Shown here in pieces: positions 36,490-42,668 of a DNA stretch of 64,000 bases. A program made the translations under genes and the position numbers. The DNA lies in contig AP018318.1 of the NCBI GenBank assembly GCA_003990705.1, positions 2,173,501-2,237,500 of the forward strand, read 5' to 3'. This DNA comes from Nostoc sp. HK-01 (GTDB lineage: Bacteria > Cyanobacteriota > Cyanobacteriia > Cyanobacteriales > Nostocaceae). Within the stretch, counting starts at the first letter, position 1. Every line of letters starts with the position of its first letter. The notes under the pieces were generated by a model. It was not told the origin of the DNA. It saw only the letters and a program-made list of their open reading frames with translations, and searched no databases.

Positions 36490-36620
36490 TGAGTGTAGGG
36501 GTGAAAGGGTTTAGGGTGTAAGGGTTTTAGATAAGCTAATCGTCGTTTAAATTGCACCATATTCATGGTGAAAAAAGCTGGAAACCCTCTCCCTTACACC
36601 CTTCCCAAAACCCTTGGTTT
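36490..36620. repeat. Imperfect inverted repeat downstream of glmM
   Basis: GGGTTTAGGGTGTAAGGG (36508-36525) pairs imperfectly with CCCTTACACCCTTCCCAAAACCC (36591-36613). It probably is a dispersed palindromic repeat and may end glmM transcription. Confidence 0.6.
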
Positions 36621-36689
36621 TACATTATTCCGCCTTCGCGGACTTTGTTTTTATAGCCAAACCAGTGTGTTGGGCGGCTCTGCCGACTT

Positions 36690-36725
36690 GTAGACGCGCT
36701 CTGCGAGAAGCCGCGCAGAGTAGCA
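36690..36725. repeat. Dispersed hairpin repeat
   Basis: CTCTGCG and CGCAGAG form a stem (36699-36720) within the stretch GTAGACGCGCTCTGCGAGAAG, a G/C-rich island in AT-rich sequence. It resembles interspersed repeats of Nostocales. It is within 40 bp of the next gene's stop. Confidence 0.5.
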
Positions 36726-36757
36726 ACTGGCGTGCAAATTTCATTCGTCGGGGCTAT

Positions 36758-36973
36758 TTATTCCCCTGCGTCCTCTGTGGTTTGTTTTTTACCTTGCAAA
36801 CTGCGAAGTTTAACCAACACCGGGATATACTGTTGAATCATCCACATTAACGCTTCAACAGATAAGTTGCCTTGGTCAATGCGGACTTTAGCTTGTAAGC
36901 CAATTAAAAATAGTTGCATTGCCAACAACAAAGCAATAATTTTACCAATAATATCTTGACCCTTGCGTTGCAT
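36758..36973 (-). CDS. 71-residue membrane protein divergent from the NLR-like gene
   Basis: The protein starts at ATG 36973 (an upstream TTG at 36988 is less likely). It has a basic head (MQRKGQDIIGK), one membrane segment (IIALLLAMQLFLIGLQ), an amphipathic stretch with VDQ/SVEALMWMIQQYIPVLVKL and a polar Lys/Glu tail. No family is recognised. It is transcribed away from the NB-ARC gene across a 168-bp spacer full of ACCCCAAA boxes, which suggests shared control. It may be a membrane partner of that system; this is inference. Confidence 0.55.
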   Translation of the reverse strand: MQRKGQDIIGKIIALLLAMQLFLIGLQAKVRIDQGNLSVEALMWMIQQYIPVLVKLRSLQGKKQTTEDAGE

Positions 36974-36981
36974 GAGTTTGT

Positions 36982-37116
36982 ACCCCAAAGAGTTGATAGA
37001 TACAGGTTCTCTTTGGGGTCGTGACCCTAAGCAAACACCCCAAACTCGCCAAAAATGCTATAAAATCAGGATTCAATCAATTTGGGGTAGTAATTTTTAT
37101 GTGGGGTAGCCCCAAA
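36982..37116. promoter_or_regulatory. Cluster of TTTGGGGT/ACCCCAAA boxes between divergent genes
   Basis: Boxes: ACCCCAAAGAG (36982-36992), CTCTTTGGGGT (37009-37019), ACCCCAAA (37037-37044), TTTGGGGT (37081-37088) and the palindrome TGGGGTAGCCCCA (37102-37114). The first two form a perfect 11-bp inverted repeat with a 16-base gap. The cluster spans the spacer between the 71-residue membrane protein and the NB-ARC gene, and the last box ends 28 bp before the latter's ATG. It looks like an operator for a common regulator or an RNA structure; no such regulator is encoded next to it. Confidence 0.6.
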
Positions 37117-37141
37117 CTTTCTGGTTAACTTTACGCTTGCA

Positions 37142-40100
37142 ATGCCAAGAAAAACTTACGGCCCAGAAATTCAAAAGCGAGTCAAGCGTCTGTTAGCGGC
37201 GTTGCTTTGTTTCGCGGCTAGGGAAGTTGAGGAAGATAAATTTAAGATTGAGTATGACTGGAAAGAAGAAGACAGTGTTCACCCCAAACTGACGATAAAA
37301 ACAACTCTGGTAACTTTGGAGTTGCTGACGCAAGAAGACGAACATCCCGGTAAGTTAACTAAAACGCAAATTCGAGAAGCACTGAACTTACTCAAAGATT
37401 TTGTCAAAATTCTGGAAGATAACCGTATTCAAACCAAAGGTTCTGATAATTGGCACTTTACTTTAAAGCTATGGTCAAGGGATAGAGAAAAGAACCTGAA
37501 ACGGTTTGATGAGGTATGGGAAAGTAACAGACCAAATAAATCAAAACTAGTCAACCCCTTAATTTTTCCTCCTTCCCTACAAGGGAAGGGGGCTAGGGGG
37601 TTAGGTCAAATACAGATATTCCAAGCGCCACCATTACCCATACACTTTGTAGAACGCCCAGAATACAGCAATGATTTAAAAACTCGCCTCCTCACAAGTA
37701 ATCAAACTTTAGTCATTACTGCAATTCACGGTTTGGGTTCAGTGGGCAAATCTACTTTAGCCGCAGCTTTAGCTTATGATGCAGAAATTCAAACGCGGTT
37801 TTGTGATGGCATATTATGGGCAACATTAGGTCAACAACCTGATGTTTTATCTTTGCTGAGTGGTTGGGTGCAAGCGTTAGGAGACTATAGTTTTAAACCT
37901 ACCAGTGTAGAAGCAACTGTCTCGCAATTGCGGACTTTGCTTTATGACAAAGCCGTGCTGTTAGTGGTGGATGATGCTTGGAATACACAAGATGCTCAAG
38001 CGTTTAATGTTGGTGGTGCGCGTTGTCAAGTTTTAGTAACCACCCGTGACGAGGCAATTGCTGATGCTTTAGCTGCCAGAATCTACAACCTGGATATCAT
38101 GACAGATACACAGGCGATGGAACTGTTAACAAAAAAATTAGGGCGGGAAATTACAGGTAAAGAGCGTCAGTCAGCTGCAAATTTAGCTGAAGATGTTGGT
38201 TATTTACCCCTAGCATTGGAACTCGCAGCCGCCGAAGTTGCCAGTGGTACAACTTGGGATGAATTATTGGCAGATATTCGGCAAGAGATAGCAAGATTAA
38301 GAAGTTTTGACCGACCAGAAGCAGAAGAAATCACCGATGAGGCGAGTTTAAAACGCCTGAGTTTAACAGCGTCATTAAACTTAAGTGTCAAGCGAATGCC
38401 ACCAATCAAGCAGCAGCATTTTGCTTGGTTGGGAGTGTTACCCGAAGATGTAACCATTAATAAGATGATGGCAGCGACACTGTGGGAAATGGATGAGCGT
38501 GATGCTGCCAAGATGTTGCAATATTTACAGAGGAAAGCATTGCTGTTAACAGGAGTACCTCTTGCTGATAGTACGCCTACCTATCGGTTACATGACTTAT
38601 TCCATGATTTAGCCTGTAATTTTTTAACTGCACCGTTATTAGAAAACCCCTCTCCAAACCTCTCCCCTGCAAGAAGAGAGGCTTTAAATATTCCCCCCTT
38701 CCCTACTAGGGAAGGGGGGCTAGGGGGGTTAGGTTTCAACCTTGCTGATGCTCACGCTGCTTTCTTGGAGAAATATCGGCAAAAAACCCAAGATAATTTA
38801 TGGCATACCTTACCGAATGATGGTTACATTCATCAGCATTTAGTTTGGCATTTAGAAAAAGCAGGACAAATAGAACAGATTCACCAGTTATTGCGGGAAG
38901 AGTCGGCGACTGGCAATAATGGCTGGTATGAAGTACGAGAAAGATTAGCACAAACTGGCGGTTACATCACAGATATTTCTCGTGCTTGGGAATTAGCCGA
39001 AGCGAATTGGACTGAATCAACTTTGCCTCAAATTGTAAGTTTGCAGTGTCGTTATGGTTTGATTACAGCTTCTTTGAATAGCTTGGCTGCTAATTTACCA
39101 GTAGACTTGCTAGTGGCGTTAGTCAAAAACAAACTGTGGACTGCTGAACAAGGACTAGCTTATGCACTACAAAAACCAGAACCAGAGGAAAAAGTCAAAG
39201 CCCTGGCAGAGTTAGTCAACTATTTACCGCCAAATTTAGAAAAACTAGTACTTTTAAAAGCACTCGTTGCCGCTAGGGAGATTCAAGATGAGTATTATCG
39301 TGCTGATGCCCTAAGTGCATTAGCCGAAAAACTGCCACCGGATTTGCTGCCAGAGGCACTCGCTGCCGCAAGGGCAATTCAAGATGAGTATTATCGTGCC
39401 GATGCCCTAAGTGCATTAGCAAGCAAACTGCCAGAAATTTTACCAGAAGCACTCGCTGCCGCTAGGGCTATGCAGTATGAGCAGTATCACGTCCAAACCC
39501 TAAGTGCCTTAACAGACATACTGCCAGAAATGTTGCCAGAAAAACTTGTCGCCGCAAAGGCTATACAGGATGAGTATTCTCGCGCCGATACCCTCTCTGC
39601 ATTAGTAGACAAACTGCCAGAAATTTTACCAGAAGCACTCACCGCAGCAAAGACTATTCGGGGTGAGGCTAATCGCGCAGTTGTACTGAGAAAATTAGCA
39701 GACAAACTGCCACCAGAGTTGATAGCAGAAGCACTCACTACCGCTAGGGCAATTGAGAATGAGCAGTATCGCGCCGATGCCTTAACTGCATTAGCAGACA
39801 AACTGCCACCAGAGTTGATAGCAGAAGCACTCACCACCGCTAGGGCAATTGAGAATGAGCAGTATCGCGCCGATGCCTTAACTGCATTAGCAGACAAACT
39901 GCCACCAGAGTTGATAGCAGAAGCACTCACTACCGCTAGGGCAAAGTATGAAATTTATCGCGCTTATACCCTGAGAAAATTAGCAGATAAACTGCCATCA
40001 GAGTTGTTACCAGAAGTACTGGCTGTCGCTAGGGAGATTCAGGATGAGTATTCTCGCGCTAATGCGCTAATTGCATTAGCAGACAAACTGCCAGAGGTAT

Positions 40101-40840
40101 TGCCAGAAGCACTTGCCGCCGCTAGGTCGGTTCAGAATAAGAGAGATTGCACTATTGCCCTAATTGCATTAACAGAGAAACTGCCAGAGATATTGCCAGA
40201 AGCACTTGCCGCCGCTAGGGCAATTCCAAATGAATATGTTCGCGCTTATTTCCTGAGTGAATTAACAGAGAAACTGCCAGAGGTATTGCCAGAAGCACTC
40301 ACTGCCGCTAGGGAGATTCAGGATGAAAGCGATCGCGTCTATGTCCTTACTGTATTAGCAGACAAACTACCAGAGGTGTTGCCAGAAGCACTTGCCGCTG
40401 CTAGGGCAATTCAAGATGAGTATTATCGCGCCAATGCCCTGAGTGCATTAGCAGACAAACTAACAGAGGTGTTGTCAGAAGCACTTACCACAGCTAGGGA
40501 GATTCAAGATGAGTATTATCGTGCCGATGCCCTGAGTGCATTAGCTGATAAACTGCCTCCTGAGTTGTTGGCAGAAGCACTCAGCACTGCTAAGGTAATT
40601 CAGTCTGAGTATTCTCGCGCCTCTGCTCTGAGTGCCTTAGCGTCTAGTCTGTCACAAATGCCATTTAGTGAACTTTTCCTTCTTTGGCAAGAGACAATTC
40701 ATTACTTATCTCTCCGCACTCGCTCTAATTTACTATCCGATATAAAGGCGTTGTTTCCAGTTATCTTTGCATTAGGTGGTGAAGCAGCAACGGCAGAAGT
40801 TGCCCGTGCAATTATAGATGTGACACGGTGGTGGCGGTGA
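37142..40840 (+). CDS. NB-ARC (STAND) NLR-like protein with C-terminal helical repeats
   Basis: This 1232-residue protein has the layout of an NLR-type sensor. An N-terminal domain (1-135, ending in NWHFTLKLWSRDREKNLKRFDEVW) of unnamed type is followed by NB-ARC: Walker A GLGSVGKST (about 197-205), Walker B AVLLVVDDAW (273-282), QVLVTTR (about 297-303), YLPLALELA (GLPL-like, about 353). A winged helix and YRLHDLFHDLA (about 481-491, MHD-like) come next. From about 700 there are some 15 helical repeats of 31-32 residues (LPEVLPEALAAAR-I-x-DEY-RADALSALADK), near-identical in places. Two palindromic repeats lie in frame inside it. STAND proteins oligomerise on ligand binding, often in antiviral defence or cell death. 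Confidence 0.9.
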   Translation: MPRKTYGPEIQKRVKRLLAALLCFAAREVEEDKFKIEYDWKEEDSVHPKLTIKTTLVTLELLTQEDEHPGKLTKTQIREALNLLKDFVKILEDNRIQTKGSDNWHFTLKLWSRDREKNLKRFDEVWESNRPNKSKLVNPLIFPPSLQGKGARGLGQIQIFQAPPLPIHFVERPEYSNDLKTRLLTSNQTLVITAIHGLGSVGKSTLAAALAYDAEIQTRFCDGILWATLGQQPDVLSLLSGWVQALGDYSFKPTSVEATVSQLRTLLYDKAVLLVVDDAWNTQDAQAFNVGGARCQVLVTTRDEAIADALAARIYNLDIMTDTQAMELLTKKLGREITGKERQSAANLAEDVGYLPLALELAAAEVASGTTWDELLADIRQEIARLRSFDRPEAEEITDEASLKRLSLTASLNLSVKRMPPIKQQHFAWLGVLPEDVTINKMMAATLWEMDERDAAKMLQYLQRKALLLTGVPLADSTPTYRLHDLFHDLACNFLTAPLLENPSPNLSPARREALNIPPFPTREGGLGGLGFNLADAHAAFLEKYRQKTQDNLWHTLPNDGYIHQHLVWHLEKAGQIEQIHQLLREESATGNNGWYEVRERLAQTGGYITDISRAWELAEANWTESTLPQIVSLQCRYGLITASLNSLAANLPVDLLVALVKNKLWTAEQGLAYALQKPEPEEKVKALAELVNYLPPNLEKLVLLKALVAAREIQDEYYRADALSALAEKLPPDLLPEALAAARAIQDEYYRADALSALASKLPEILPEALAAARAMQYEQYHVQTLSALTDILPEMLPEKLVAAKAIQDEYSRADTLSALVDKLPEILPEALTAAKTIRGEANRAVVLRKLADKLPPELIAEALTTARAIENEQYRADALTALADKLPPELIAEALTTARAIENEQYRADALTALADKLPPELIAEALTTARAKYEIYRAYTLRKLADKLPSELLPEVLAVAREIQDEYSRANALIALADKLPEVLPEALAAARSVQNKRDCTIALIALTEKLPEILPEALAAARAIPNEYVRAYFLSELTEKLPEVLPEALTAAREIQDESDRVYVLTVLADKLPEVLPEALAAARAIQDEYYRANALSALADKLTEVLSEALTTAREIQDEYYRADALSALADKLPPELLAEALSTAKVIQSEYSRASALSALASSLSQMPFSELFLLWQETIHYLSLRTRSNLLSDIKALFPVIFALGGEAATAEVARAIIDVTRWWR
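37553..37610. repeat. Palindromic repeat inserted in frame in the NB-ARC gene
   Basis: CCTTCCCT-ACA-AGGGAAGG forms the tip of a hairpin, with AACCCCTTA and CTAGGGGGTTAGG as outer arms. It encodes the Pro/Gly-rich NPLIFPPSLQGKGARGLGQ linker just before the NB-ARC domain, without breaking the frame. A related copy lies at 38644-38735. Confidence 0.8.
38644..38735. repeat. Second in-frame palindromic repeat in the NB-ARC gene
   Basis: CCCCCCTTCCCT-ACT-AGGGAAGGGGGG is a perfect 12-bp palindrome (38693-38719), flanked by ACCCCTCTCCAAACCTCTCCCC on the left and GCTAGGGGGGTTAGG on the right. It encodes a Pro/Gly/Arg-rich stretch (about residues 501-531) between the winged helix and the helical repeats. 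Confidence 0.8.
39707..39943 (+). repeat. 96-bp tandem repeats, nearly identical, in the NB-ARC gene
   Basis: Units start at 39707, 39803 and 39899. The first two are 96 bp and differ by a single visible base; the third matches for about 45 bases and then diverges. Each encodes one 32-residue helical repeat (LPPELIAEALTTARAIENEQ...). This identity points to recent duplication within the array. Confidence 0.9.
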
Positions 40841-40893
40841 AAAGACACAATGATGCAGTATTTATAGTTTAGGGCAAAGTAGGATTTAACAGT

Positions 40894-41262
40894 CTATTCA
40901 TCAATCCAAGTCGTTAAAAATTCTACTTGGTTCTGCATTTCTGCTGCTGACTTAGCTGTAATTAACCTCAAAATCCCGCGCATTAATTCGCCTACTGAGT
41001 AACGCTGCTGCTGTACTAAAATCATTCCTGCATGAGATTTTTCTTTGCTCAAAAAATCACTGTGCAAACGGTAGAAATCTCTAATATTAGAACTATATAA
41101 AACCAGACATTGCTCAGTTGCCCATGTTAACTGTTCTTCATCAGAATAGCCAAGTCTGTCTACACTTAAACTTGTAATTACCTCTACGCCACGATTTTGT
41201 AGAGCCAGAACTAAAGAGCGTGAGGTAGAATCTTCGTCCATGTACAATCGAATCTGGCTCAT
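40894..41262 (-). CDS. DUF5615 PIN-like toxin candidate
   Basis: The 122-residue protein starts IRLYMDEDSTSRSLVLALQNRGVEV, the DUF5615 pattern (PIN-like nuclease fold with the DED acidic site). Further acidic residues follow in SNIRDFYRLHSDF. It overlaps the upstream DUF433 gene by 4 bases (ATGA), the usual antitoxin-toxin arrangement of the VapBC45-like type. The module lies just downstream of the NLR-like gene on the opposite strand. Toxic ribonuclease activity is inferred from family only. Confidence 0.85.
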   Translation of the reverse strand: MSQIRLYMDEDSTSRSLVLALQNRGVEVITSLSVDRLGYSDEEQLTWATEQCLVLYSSNIRDFYRLHSDFLSKEKSHAGMILVQQQRYSVGELMRGILRLITAKSAAEMQNQVEFLTTWIDE

Positions 41263-41552
41263 GAAAGTTTTTGAGTTCGATGTAGTTTCTCTAATCTCTC
41301 AGCCTCGGCTGCTTGGGCTGCAATATCAGCATCAATTTCATCGCGGTTAGCATGATAATAAGCTAAAGCTGCATAAACCTGCGCTAAAGTTAGGTGGCTA
41401 ATCTCATCGGCAATTTTTTCTGCACTGTAACCTTGTTTATACCAAATAGCTATACGCCGGACTGTTACCCCTGTACCAGCAATAATTGGGCAACCTCCAT
41501 GTATTTCAGGATTATGATTAATTAGTGTACCGATATCGGTAATTGTTGCCAA
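41259..41552 (-). CDS. DUF433 antitoxin candidate
   Basis: The 97-residue protein has the DUF433 helix-turn-helix pattern: NPEIHGGCPIIAGTGVTVRRIAIWYKQGYSAEKIADEISHLTLAQVYAALAYYHANRDEID. DUF433 proteins are the DNA-binding antitoxin half of VapB45-type modules. It precedes and overlaps the DUF5615 gene, so they form an operon that it presumably represses. The C-terminus (EAERLEKLH) is a helix that would neutralise the toxin. Confidence 0.88.
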   Translation of the reverse strand: MATITDIGTLINHNPEIHGGCPIIAGTGVTVRRIAIWYKQGYSAEKIADEISHLTLAQVYAALAYYHANRDEIDADIAAQAAEAERLEKLHRTQKLS

Positions 41553-41675
41553 AGCTTACGCTCCTAAGTGTCTCATACTAACTATTATTGTCTATGGATT
41601 TTATATTGCCACAACAGGCTATTGACTAACCTTTTAAACTGCGATCGCCTATTGGGCTAGTGTTGTCGTAAAATT

Positions 41676-41707
41676 TCTGTTCAAGCTATATGGTAATTGC
41701 GATCGCC
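41676..41707 (+). repeat. Left copy of a 32-bp direct repeat flanking a toxin-antitoxin module
   Basis: The stretch TCTGTTCAAGCTATATGGTA plus ATTGCGATCGCC recurs at 42358-42389 with 29 of 32 identical bases. The two copies bracket the RelE-type module at 41769-42277. Confidence 0.8.
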
Positions 41708-41768
41708 TCAACTAGTTTTCATATTGCAATCGCTCAAAGCGATCACATTTTCATTAACAATATTTGAA

Positions 41769-42032
41769 CTAACTTTTTCTATAAACATCTTTCCGATGCT
41801 TGCACTGCAAAATCTGTACAAGTTGACTTTCATCATCAACCTCATAACGGACTCTATAATCACCGATGCGGATACGATACTCGCTATTAGAACCTTTTAA
41901 TTTGACAACTCCATCGGGACGCGGTTCCGCAGCAAGATTTTGGATTTTCTCAAGTACACGCTCGACAATATCAGTGGGTAAATTATCAATCTGCTTTTGT
42001 ACCGACTTGGAAATAACGACTATATAACTCAT
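41769..42032 (-). CDS. RelE/ParE family toxin
   Basis: The 87-residue protein has the RelE/ParE fold pattern: SYIVVISKSVQKQIDNLPTDIVERVLEKI...LAAEPRPDGVVKLKGSNSEYRIRIGDYRVRYEVDDESQLVQILQCKHRKDVY. The YRIRIGDYRVRYEV core and the C-terminal HRKDVY are the usual active-site region of the mRNA-cleaving RelE branch. It overlaps the antitoxin gene by one base. Confidence 0.9.
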   Translation of the reverse strand: MSYIVVISKSVQKQIDNLPTDIVERVLEKIQNLAAEPRPDGVVKLKGSNSEYRIRIGDYRVRYEVDDESQLVQILQCKHRKDVYRKS

Positions 42033-42277
42033 TACCTCTGATCTGATCGGTTAGCAAGATATTCATCTATAGTTACAGACTCACCATTTTTATACTCAGC
42101 ACGAATTGCTTCAATTTCTTTTTCTGTTTCCTCATCGTCTTCATACAATGCTTCTTCCGCTTCAAAAATTTGTTGCTCAATTAGCTCTTGCAGTTGGCGT
42201 TTCTCTTTTAAATCAAGAGAAGATATTGCTTCTGCTAAGGCTTCTAAGGAAAGTTGTACTTTAACAATGGCTGGCAT
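42032..42277 (-). CDS. Antitoxin of the RelE-type module
   Basis: The 81-residue protein is mostly helical and acidic (FEAEEALYEDDEETEKEIEAIRAEYKNGESVTIDEYLANR). It lacks a recognisable DNA-binding domain of the RHH or AbrB type but is of the kind that precedes RelE/StbE toxins in cyanobacteria. Its stop overlaps the toxin start by one base (TGATG-like junction). It is upstream, as is usual for type II antitoxins. Confidence 0.8.
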   Translation of the reverse strand: MPAIVKVQLSLEALAEAISSLDLKEKRQLQELIEQQIFEAEEALYEDDEETEKEIEAIRAEYKNGESVTIDEYLANRSDQR

Positions 42278-42437: not shown

Positions 42438-42668
42438 GGTCTCATCCATAGAGAAACTCAACGCGTTTGTGACCAACGACTTGAGCTTTGTTATCAACGG
42501 GGTCTCATCCATAGACAACCTCAACGCATTTGTGACCAACGACTTGAGCTTTGTTATCAACGGGGTCTCATCCATAGACAACCTCAACGCATTTGTGACC
42601 AACGATTTGAGCTTTGTTATTAACGAGACCTCATCCATAGACAACCTCAACGCATTTGTAACCAACGG
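42438..42668. repeat. 63-bp minisatellite, three full units and one partial
   Basis: Units start at 42438, 42501, 42564 and 42627 with only a few differences. The unit runs from GGTCTCATCCATAGA to TTTGTTATCAACGG. The length is a multiple of three and contains no stop in three of the six frames, so frames of 82-106 codons stay open on both strands across the array. None has a convincing start or Shine-Dalgarno. It is not a CRISPR array since there are no spacers. Confidence 0.9.

What the first reader, a model, noticed from the sequence alone, without database searches (positions are those of the whole stretch)
36973..40840. NLR-like STAND protein with recently duplicated sensor repeats
The protein has the layout of plant, fungal and bacterial NLRs: effector-like N-terminus, NB-ARC, winged helix and about 15 helical repeats. 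Two adjacent 96-bp units differ at one visible base, so the array is still expanding or being homogenised. High-identity repeats mark fast-evolving recognition domains in fungal NLRs and occur in multicellular cyanobacteria. The N-terminal domain (1-135) is of a type I cannot name, so its output is open: phage defence, self/non-self recognition or cell death.
Basis: partly seen in the sequence, partly recalled or inferred. Interest (0 to 1): 0.75.

Follow-up and report, generated by a model that had tools for sequence, protein, structure and literature searches.

The report
Cyanobacterial immune-type receptor with hypervariable repeats
A filamentous cyanobacterium carries an immune-receptor-like switch protein whose sensor is a string of similar modules that differ most at a few fast-evolving positions, and its gene sits back to back with a small hydrophobic protein of no known family that may be its output.

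Summary
ORF 37142-40840 (+), 1232 aa, reads EAD4 (PF19959, E=2.3e-38) - NB-ARC - APAF1_C-like region - 15 units of 31/32 aa - C-terminal cap. Units 6 and 7 differ at 1 of 96 bases.

In 31 homologous arrays unit number runs from 2 to 31; the 2 is from a metagenome bin and the 7 from a truncated gene. Diversity concentrates at unit positions 11, 13, 14 and 17: nonsynonymous change there exceeds the array's synonymous change in 18 of 22 testable arrays. The core is constrained. The window's own array had too few close pairs for that test.

New: the gene is half of a divergent pair. A 71-aa hydrophobic ORF (36761-36973, -) under purifying selection, in no Pfam or NCBIfam family, lies 168 bp away. 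Its profile hits beside 28 of 30 EAD4-repeat receptors and 0 of 6 EAD4-less homologues. TTTGGGG boxes cluster between the genes: two or more upstream of 50 of 93 EAD4 genes, 1 of 217 controls.

Best reading: an NLR-type receptor with a modular, fast-evolving sensor, coupled through EAD4 to a small membrane protein. Function untested.

The parts
36761..36973 (-). divergent small ORF, 71 aa (stop codon at 36758-36760): one strongly hydrophobic segment, a second weaker one, charged C-terminus; proposed partner of the EAD4 receptor
   Evidence: dN/dS 0.21-0.56 against the window copy where computable; no family; hydropathy; linkage
36974..37141 (.). shared 168-bp intergenic region with clustered TTTGGGG/CCCCAAA boxes (36983, 37012, 37038, 37081, 37110) and the inverted repeat GGGGTAGCCCC
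37142..40840 (+). STAND/NLR-like receptor gene, 1232 aa
37142..37546 (+). N-terminal EAD4 domain (residues 1-135; Pfam match 7-127)
   Evidence: PF19959, E=2.3e-38, 131.9 bits against cut-off 27; alignments
37670..38263 (+). NB-ARC NTPase domain (residues 177-374), nucleotide-binding motifs intact
38636..38738 (+). interdomain linker made of an in-frame dispersed DNA repeat
   Evidence: 57 match rows in the own genome, itself and both-strand partial matches included; dN/dS 1.21 against L044
38741..38893 (+). APAF1_C-like helical stretch (residues 534-584)
   Evidence: PF17908, 25.4 bits against cut-off 22.8
39257..40669 (+). sensor array: 15 units of 31/32 aa (residues 706-1176); variable unit positions 11, 13, 14, 17
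39728..39919 (+). two adjacent 96-bp units, 1 base different (matching block 39694-39944)
40670..40837 (+). conserved C-terminal cap after the array (residues 1177-1232)

Best explanation
An NLR-type STAND receptor and its divergently transcribed small hydrophobic partner. Shown by sequence: EAD4 - NB-ARC with intact nucleotide-binding motifs - helical region - array of 31/32-aa modules; module number and four module positions change fast while the EAD4 and NB-ARC parts are constrained; the 71-aa ORF is a conserved protein-coding gene that goes with EAD4 and not with the NB-ARC-repeat core. Inferred: the modules form an alpha-solenoid whose variable positions make a tunable binding surface for a foreign or cellular ligand; the array changes by unequal exchange and conversion between modules plus diversifying selection; ligand binding drives NB-ARC oligomerisation; the clustered EAD4 domains then act on the small hydrophobic protein, most likely a membrane-acting executioner or anchor, giving cell death or arrest (abortive infection). 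The TTTGGGG boxes are inferred to be regulatory sites shared by the two genes.
For: Domains. Array variability: (354 distinct four-residue codes in 657 units). Selection: in 22 arrays with at least 10 unit pairs of >=85% identity, positions chosen on the other arrays gave pN over the array's pS above 1 in 18, median 2.03, rest of unit median 0.48; bootstrap over arrays 2.28 (1.68-3.06). Core dN/dS 0.12-0.28 against four homologues. Partner; 59 of 116 partner places in 217 genomes lie divergent, 168-263 bp, from one of the 150 listed EAD4 places, none near but otherwise arranged; of 20 fetched from the remaining 57, 18 lie divergent from an ORF over 300 aa, and the 7 of these scanned are NACHT proteins. 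It also pairs with an EAD4 WD40-repeat protein on a Nostoc plasmid. N-terminus exchanged for a CHAT protease-like domain in a homologue with the same core and repeats, so EAD4 sits in the effector position. Boxes.
Against: No experiment. No PADLOC match. PDB sequence matches of the repeats are not significant. No EAD4-enzyme fusion in the own genome: its three EAD4 proteins are all STAND proteins. 14 of 29 other EAD4 genes and 2 of 30 EAD4-repeat genes lack the type-A partner; in L151 the profile hits but no intact small ORF was seen; plasmid copies of the receptor in Microchaete have no annotated one upstream. 4 of 22 arrays show no excess, and the window's array had only 5 qualifying pairs and was not among the 22.
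Confidence: 0.55

Rival explanations
1. EAD4 is a DNA-binding (winged-helix-like) domain. The receptor is a STAND transcription switch, in the manner of AfsR or MalT, which binds the TTTGGGG boxes and controls its own gene and the divergent small hydrophobic gene; the boxes, not a protein contact, tie partner to EAD4.
For: Two or more TTTGGGG boxes in 250 bp upstream of 50 of 93 EAD4 genes (18 of 47 after removing similar upstream regions) against 1 of 217 control genes. Boxes occur also before EAD4 genes without the type-A partner (L061, L110, L130) and in 0 of 6 EAD4-less homologues. GGGGTAGCCCCAAA occurs exactly twice in the 7.5-Mb genome, both upstream of EAD4 genes. Best PDB sequence match of the NB-ARC region is the regulator AfsR. 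Sequence pattern of EAD4 resembles a winged helix (my reading, no tool).
Against: No fold or profile evidence for a DNA-binding EAD4 (nothing significant). Kaur et al. class EAD4 as an alpha+beta protein-protein adaptor (passages). Common descent of domain and upstream DNA would give the same association. The palindrome is not general: arms of 6 or more in 14 of 47 against 13% of shuffles, and the test of box co-variation was weak (own 0.93, others 0.66). Many EAD4 genes have no TTTGGGG box (37 of 93).
Confidence: 0.3
2. Classical EAD reading (Kaur et al.): EAD4 recruits EAD4-bearing effectors in trans by homotypic contact; the small ORF is an unrelated neighbour or a regulator.
For: EAD4 over its cut-off; EAD4 on non-STAND proteins in other genomes: with a phycobilisome-like domain (L062), weak WYL/WCX (L118), AAA_35 (L121, L122), HerA (L123).
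Against: In the own genome no EAD4 protein other than three STAND proteins was found at E<=0.1; the partner ORF is under purifying selection and linked to EAD4.
Confidence: 0.2
3. Ordinary repeat protein: the array varies by neutral slippage and serves as scaffold, and the variable positions are relaxed surface residues.
For: Only one near-identical pair in the window's array; 4 of 22 arrays without excess; units of 85% identity are not independent.
Against: Relaxation gives pN/pS near 1, not a median of 2 at four held-out positions with 0.48 elsewhere; in L053, L054 and L102 the frame is 95-97% identical while the variable codons are 58-67% identical.
Confidence: 0.12

Closest known systems
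Fungal NLRs with high internal repeat conservation (HNWD family, ANK and TPR NLRs of Podospora; PMC4986451, passages seen)
   Same: NOD plus tandem repeats of high internal identity, repeat-length polymorphism, positive selection at a few positions of the unit, shuffled N-terminal domains
   Different: Bacterial; repeat unit is a 31/32-aa helical module with no Pfam family found for it, not WD, ANK or TPR; EAD4 N-terminus; variation compared between species, not within one
NWD2 / HET-S gene pair of fungi (PMC3321046, passages seen)
   Same: STAND gene next to, and in Podospora divergent from, the gene for a toxic partner that acts at the membrane
   Different: There the two proteins share an amyloid motif; none was tested or seen here, and the small ORF has no HeLo domain or other family
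EAD-containing conflict systems (Kaur et al. 2020, 2021; PMC7159879, PMC8195603, passages seen)
   Same: EAD4 at the N-terminus of a switch protein in multicellular cyanobacteria
   Different: No second EAD4 on an effector in this genome; a divergent small hydrophobic ORF and TTTGGGG boxes, which the passages seen do not mention
AfsR / Apaf-1 (PDB 8k60, 1z6t)
   Same: NB-ARC and following region match by sequence, E=8.3e-24 and 2.5e-18
   Different: AfsR carries a SARP DNA-binding N-terminus and Apaf-1 a CARD and WD40 (recalled)
DGR-diversified STAND sensors of multicellular bacteria (PMC10907252, passages seen)
   Same: STAND protein with adaptor domain and a hypervariable sensor
   Different: Variation here is spread over all units; no copy of the unit lies outside the gene in the own genome at the sensitivity (9 of 9 matches inside it); no reverse transcriptase was searched for
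alphaRep artificial binders from HEAT-like repeats (PMC3754942, search listing only)
   Same: helical modules of 31 residues with variable surface positions (31 is recalled); weak PDB hit to an alphaRep, E=0.083
   Different: Artificial library; homology not shown

Membership tests
STAND / NLR-like receptors | NB-ARC or NACHT NTPase with intact nucleotide-binding motifs | tested here: met
STAND / NLR-like receptors | N-terminal effector or adaptor and C-terminal superstructure-forming repeats | tested here: met
   EAD4; 15 repeat units. Helical fold inferred from sequence only
STAND / NLR-like receptors | ligand-induced oligomerisation | not testable with these tools
   needs biochemistry
EAD4 (PF19959) | match above the curated cut-off | tested here: met
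   131.9 bits against 27
EAD conflict systems (Kaur et al.) | second copy of the same EAD fused to an effector in the genome | tested here: not met
   three EAD4 proteins, all STAND; search at E<=0.1
Known anti-phage systems in PADLOC-DB (Avs and others) | model match | tested here: not met
   0 families at E<=1 (library of 2023)
High-internal-conservation NLR repeats | repeat-number variation between relatives | tested here: met
   2-31 units in 31 arrays kept of 45 rows
High-internal-conservation NLR repeats | positive selection at a few unit positions | tested here: met
   for the family (18 of 22 arrays); for the window's array inconclusive (5 pairs)
High-internal-conservation NLR repeats | high identity between units in this array | tested here: inconclusive
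   one pair at 99%; mean 73.5% outside the variable codons
Diversity-generating retroelement target | template repeat elsewhere in the genome | tested here: not met
   all 9 own-genome matches lie inside the gene; reverse transcriptase not searched
NWD2/HET-S-like pair | adjacent divergent gene for a membrane-acting partner | tested here: inconclusive
   divergent hydrophobic ORF present; membrane action not tested
NWD2/HET-S-like pair | amyloid motif shared by the two proteins | not tested
   -

The most novel reading that the evidence does not exclude
EAD4 is a sequence-specific DNA-binding domain that reads TTTGGGG boxes, and the whole EAD4 class, whatever its NTPase and sensor (NB-ARC, NACHT, WD40 type), is a family of immune-type receptors that work as transcription switches for a divergent small hydrophobic killer protein; in this branch the sensor is a natural programmable array in which unit positions 11, 13, 14 and 17 set the ligand. 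That would recast an adaptor thought to be protein-protein as a DNA switch and add an unnamed effector family.
Probability: 0.25. Interest if true: 0.88.

Novelty: new variant of a known kind. Interest (0 to 1): 0.7.

Why it matters
It gives a bacterial counterpart to the fastest-evolving fungal NLRs, in organisms that can be cultured and transformed, with a concrete mutable code (four positions per unit) whose ligand specificity can be tested. The divergent hydrophobic ORF and the TTTGGGG boxes offer a first testable answer to what EAD4 does, which has been a prediction since 2020. If the pair is a receptor and its membrane effector, it parallels the fungal NWD2/HET-S pair and would name the output of a receptor class found in more than half of the related genomes searched (EAD4 in 125 of 217).

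Tried and rejected
Metabolic or enzymatic N-terminus: rejected, EAD4 only. Pfam labels RhoGAP, Nterm_IS4, DUF2281 on the repeats: rejected, no stretch passed on its own. Known defence system: no PADLOC match. RNA element upstream: no Rfam match at E<=1 in 36500-41700. DGR: no copy of the unit outside the gene. EAD4 effector in trans in this genome: none found. Viral copies of EAD4: none confirmed in viral contigs by one scan. EAD4 in solved structures: nothing significant. General operator palindrome: only weakly supported. Structure: could not be predicted, so alpha-solenoid, winged helix and membrane topology rest on sequence reading. Literature: the ten paper searches listed no paper, as far as titles and abstracts show, on hypervariable repeats in cyanobacterial NLR-like proteins or on the small partner; most subscription journals are not held.

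Rows dropped: 45 repeat-bearing frames were examined; 14 lacking one array flank or holding unreadable residues were dropped, leaving 31. In one search, 9 of 31 arrays had fewer than 10 pairs. In one search, genes with identical first 400 residues counted once and one with short upstream sequence (positive) was set aside.
Full report
The observation. The frame at 37142-40840 (+) encodes 1232 residues without a break. Pfam finds EAD4 at 7-127 (E=2.3e-38), NB-ARC at 177-374 (E=5.3e-22) and APAF1_C at 534-584 (just above cut-off); the other listed repeat-region hits do not pass on any single stretch. From residue 706 to 1176 lie 15 units of 31 or 32 residues (TRF 14.7 copies). Units 6 and 7 are identical in protein and differ at one of 96 bases; every other pair is 54-83% identical.

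What the protein is. Nucleotide-binding motifs are intact. By sequence the NB-ARC-to-helical region matches AfsR (8.3e-24) and Apaf-1 (2.5e-18) among solved structures, with plant NLRs below. The N-terminal domain is EAD4, one of the effector-associated domains of Kaur et al., described there as alpha+beta and as an adaptor that recruits effectors (passages). The own genome holds three EAD4 proteins, all STAND: this one, one with NACHT and HEAT repeats (L060), one with NB-ARC and TPRs (L061), among 17 NB-ARC matches, 15 over cut-off. EAD4 occurs in 125 of 217 genomes of the family. Elsewhere the same NB-ARC-repeat core has other N-termini, among them a CHAT domain (L053, E=2.5e-11; core), and one such EAD4-less homologue (L058) shares part of the 3' flank of our gene.

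The array is the fast part. I kept 31 arrays of 45 repeat-bearing frames. Unit numbers were 2, 7, 9, 10, 15, 16, 17, 18, 20, 21 and so on to 31. The 2 comes from a metagenome bin (L141) and the 7 from a gene whose C-terminus is broken, so 9-31 is the safer range. Homologues with cores 94.4, 93.8 and 92.7% identical have 28 v 30, 28 v 22 and 24 v 20 units. The nearest neighbour of a unit, variable codons masked, lies in the same array in 60% of cases against 3.4% at random, but only 32% for the window's array. Some arrays (L046, L053, L054, L102) are 95-97% identical in their frame while the codons at positions 11, 13, 14 and 17 are 58-68% identical. 657 units hold 354 distinct residue codes at these positions.

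Selection. I took unit pairs of at least 85% identity within an array and chose the four fastest positions on all other arrays. In 22 arrays with at least 10 pairs, pN at these positions exceeded the array's pS in 18; the median ratio was 2.03, against 0.48 for the other positions; the bootstrap over arrays gave 2.28 (1.68-3.06). Four arrays (L055, L094, L098, L110) were below 1. Pairs are not independent, and arrays of close relatives are included, so this is strong but not a codon-model test. In the window's array, all pairs pooled, positions 13, 14 and 17 had pN 0.53, and positions outside the six most variable had pN/pS 0.54. Against four homologues the core has dN/dS 0.12-0.28. Positions 13, 14, 17, 20/21 and 24 would lie on one face of a helix (inference).

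An unexplained detail. At positions 11, 14 and 17 the first two codon bases vary freely but the third is T in 612 of 625, 577 of 589 and 380 of 385 T/C-ending codons, against 2274 of 3050 in the core; context-matched core codons give 70-86%. Recent homogenisation with selection on residues may explain it; a targeted mutator would too. No copy of the unit lies outside the gene in the own genome, which speaks against a template-based one.

The partner. Upstream, on the other strand, 36973-36761 encodes 71 residues with a hydrophobic segment (17-residue Kyte-Doolittle mean 2.47), a weaker second one (1.16) and a charged C-terminus. Homologues keep the frame, with dN/dS 0.21-0.56 against the window where computable. 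Pfam and NCBIfam have no family for it. A profile of it, stops read through, hits upstream of 28 of 30 EAD4-repeat receptors, 15 of 29 other EAD4 genes and none of six EAD4-less homologues, one of which had only 228 bp to look at. In L151 the profile hits but I saw no intact ORF. In 217 genomes it matched 116 places in 86 genomes; 59 lie divergent, 168-263 bp, from one of 150 listed EAD4 places (the EAD4 list was cut). Of 57 others I fetched 20: 18 are divergent from an ORF over 300 aa, 2 stand alone; the 7 partners scanned are NACHT proteins, three with EAD4 over cut-off, one with a weak EAD4 and three without an EAD4 match. One Nostoc plasmid has it 171 bp from an EAD4 protein annotated as WD40-repeat. 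A second, unrelated hydrophobic ORF of 47-53 aa takes its place before EAD4-NB-ARC-TPR genes (L061, L120, L131, L132). Microchaete plasmid copies of the receptor have no annotated one.

The module moves as a block. Between the window and L046, synonymous differences are 0.11 in the small ORF and 0.16 in EAD4 but 0.50 in NB-ARC and 0.34 in the helical part, as if small ORF, promoter and EAD4 had been exchanged together.

The boxes. The 168-bp space holds TTTGGGG or CCCCAAA at 36983, 37012, 37038, 37081 and 37110. Two or more such boxes lie within 250 bp of 50 of 93 EAD4 genes, 18 of 47 after thinning, and 1 of 217 other genes; 37 of 93 EAD4 genes have none. GGGGTAGCCCCAAA occurs exactly twice in the genome, before two EAD4 genes. 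Six EAD4-less homologues and three genes with another N-terminus have none. Palindromy is only weakly enriched (14 of 47 against 13% of shuffles) and the co-variation test was weak.

How it most likely works. Ligand bound by the array releases NB-ARC, which oligomerises and clusters EAD4; EAD4 engages the small hydrophobic protein, or its promoter, and the cell stops or dies. Only the parts and their linkage are shown; every step of action is inferred. The main rival is that EAD4 binds DNA.

Novelty. Receptor and EAD4 are known kinds. New, as far as ten paper searches and the family libraries go, are the unit with no Pfam family found for it and its four-position code, the divergent partner family, and the boxes. 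I rate it a new variant of a known kind.

Noticed in passing
window 38636-38738 and about 37547-37612: Interdomain linker 2 is an in-frame copy of a dispersed DNA repeat (57 match rows in the own genome, itself and partial both-strand matches included). Linker 1 looks like a similar repeat by eye but was not searched.
   Followed up: partly
unit positions 11, 13, 14, 17 (array 39257-40669 and 30 homologous arrays): Third codon base is T in about 98% of T/C-ending codons at positions 11, 14 and 17 although the first two bases vary; context-matched core codons give 70-86%. Unexplained.
   Followed up: partly
L044 6674-9622 and L045 7160-7657: In one same-genus genome the receptor lacks its C-terminal cap, and a C-terminal fragment with part of our gene's 3' flank lies about 104 kb away on the other strand: a rearrangement or a second, decayed copy.
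   Followed up: partly
L047 6234-9677: The same repeat array (about 30 profile hits) flanked by pentapeptide repeats, with no NTPase domain matched: the array also exists outside NLR-like proteins.
   Followed up: no
L062 6983-8206: EAD4 fused to a phycobilisome-like domain, with the small divergent partner upstream.
   Followed up: no
L202 and L201: Small hydrophobic ORF without a STAND neighbour over 300 aa within 600 bp; the genome of L202 (G071) also carries an EAD4-repeat receptor without the partner (L110).
   Followed up: no
L123, L124, L118, L116: EAD4 genes with other downstream domains (HerA in L123, weak WYL in L118, nSTAND1-like in L116) have other small ORFs divergent at 170-207 bp; each EAD4 subclass may have its own partner. 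L124 was not domain-scanned.
   Followed up: no
window 40894-42277: Downstream, two small-gene pairs on the - strand that look like toxin-antitoxin or DUF5615/DUF433 pairs (labels recalled).
   Followed up: no
window 42438-42667: Tandem array of a 63-bp unit, 3.7 copies, 94% match.
   Followed up: no
L051 and L101: Stretches of unreadable bases in two relatives' arrays; these rows were left out of counts.
   Followed up: no
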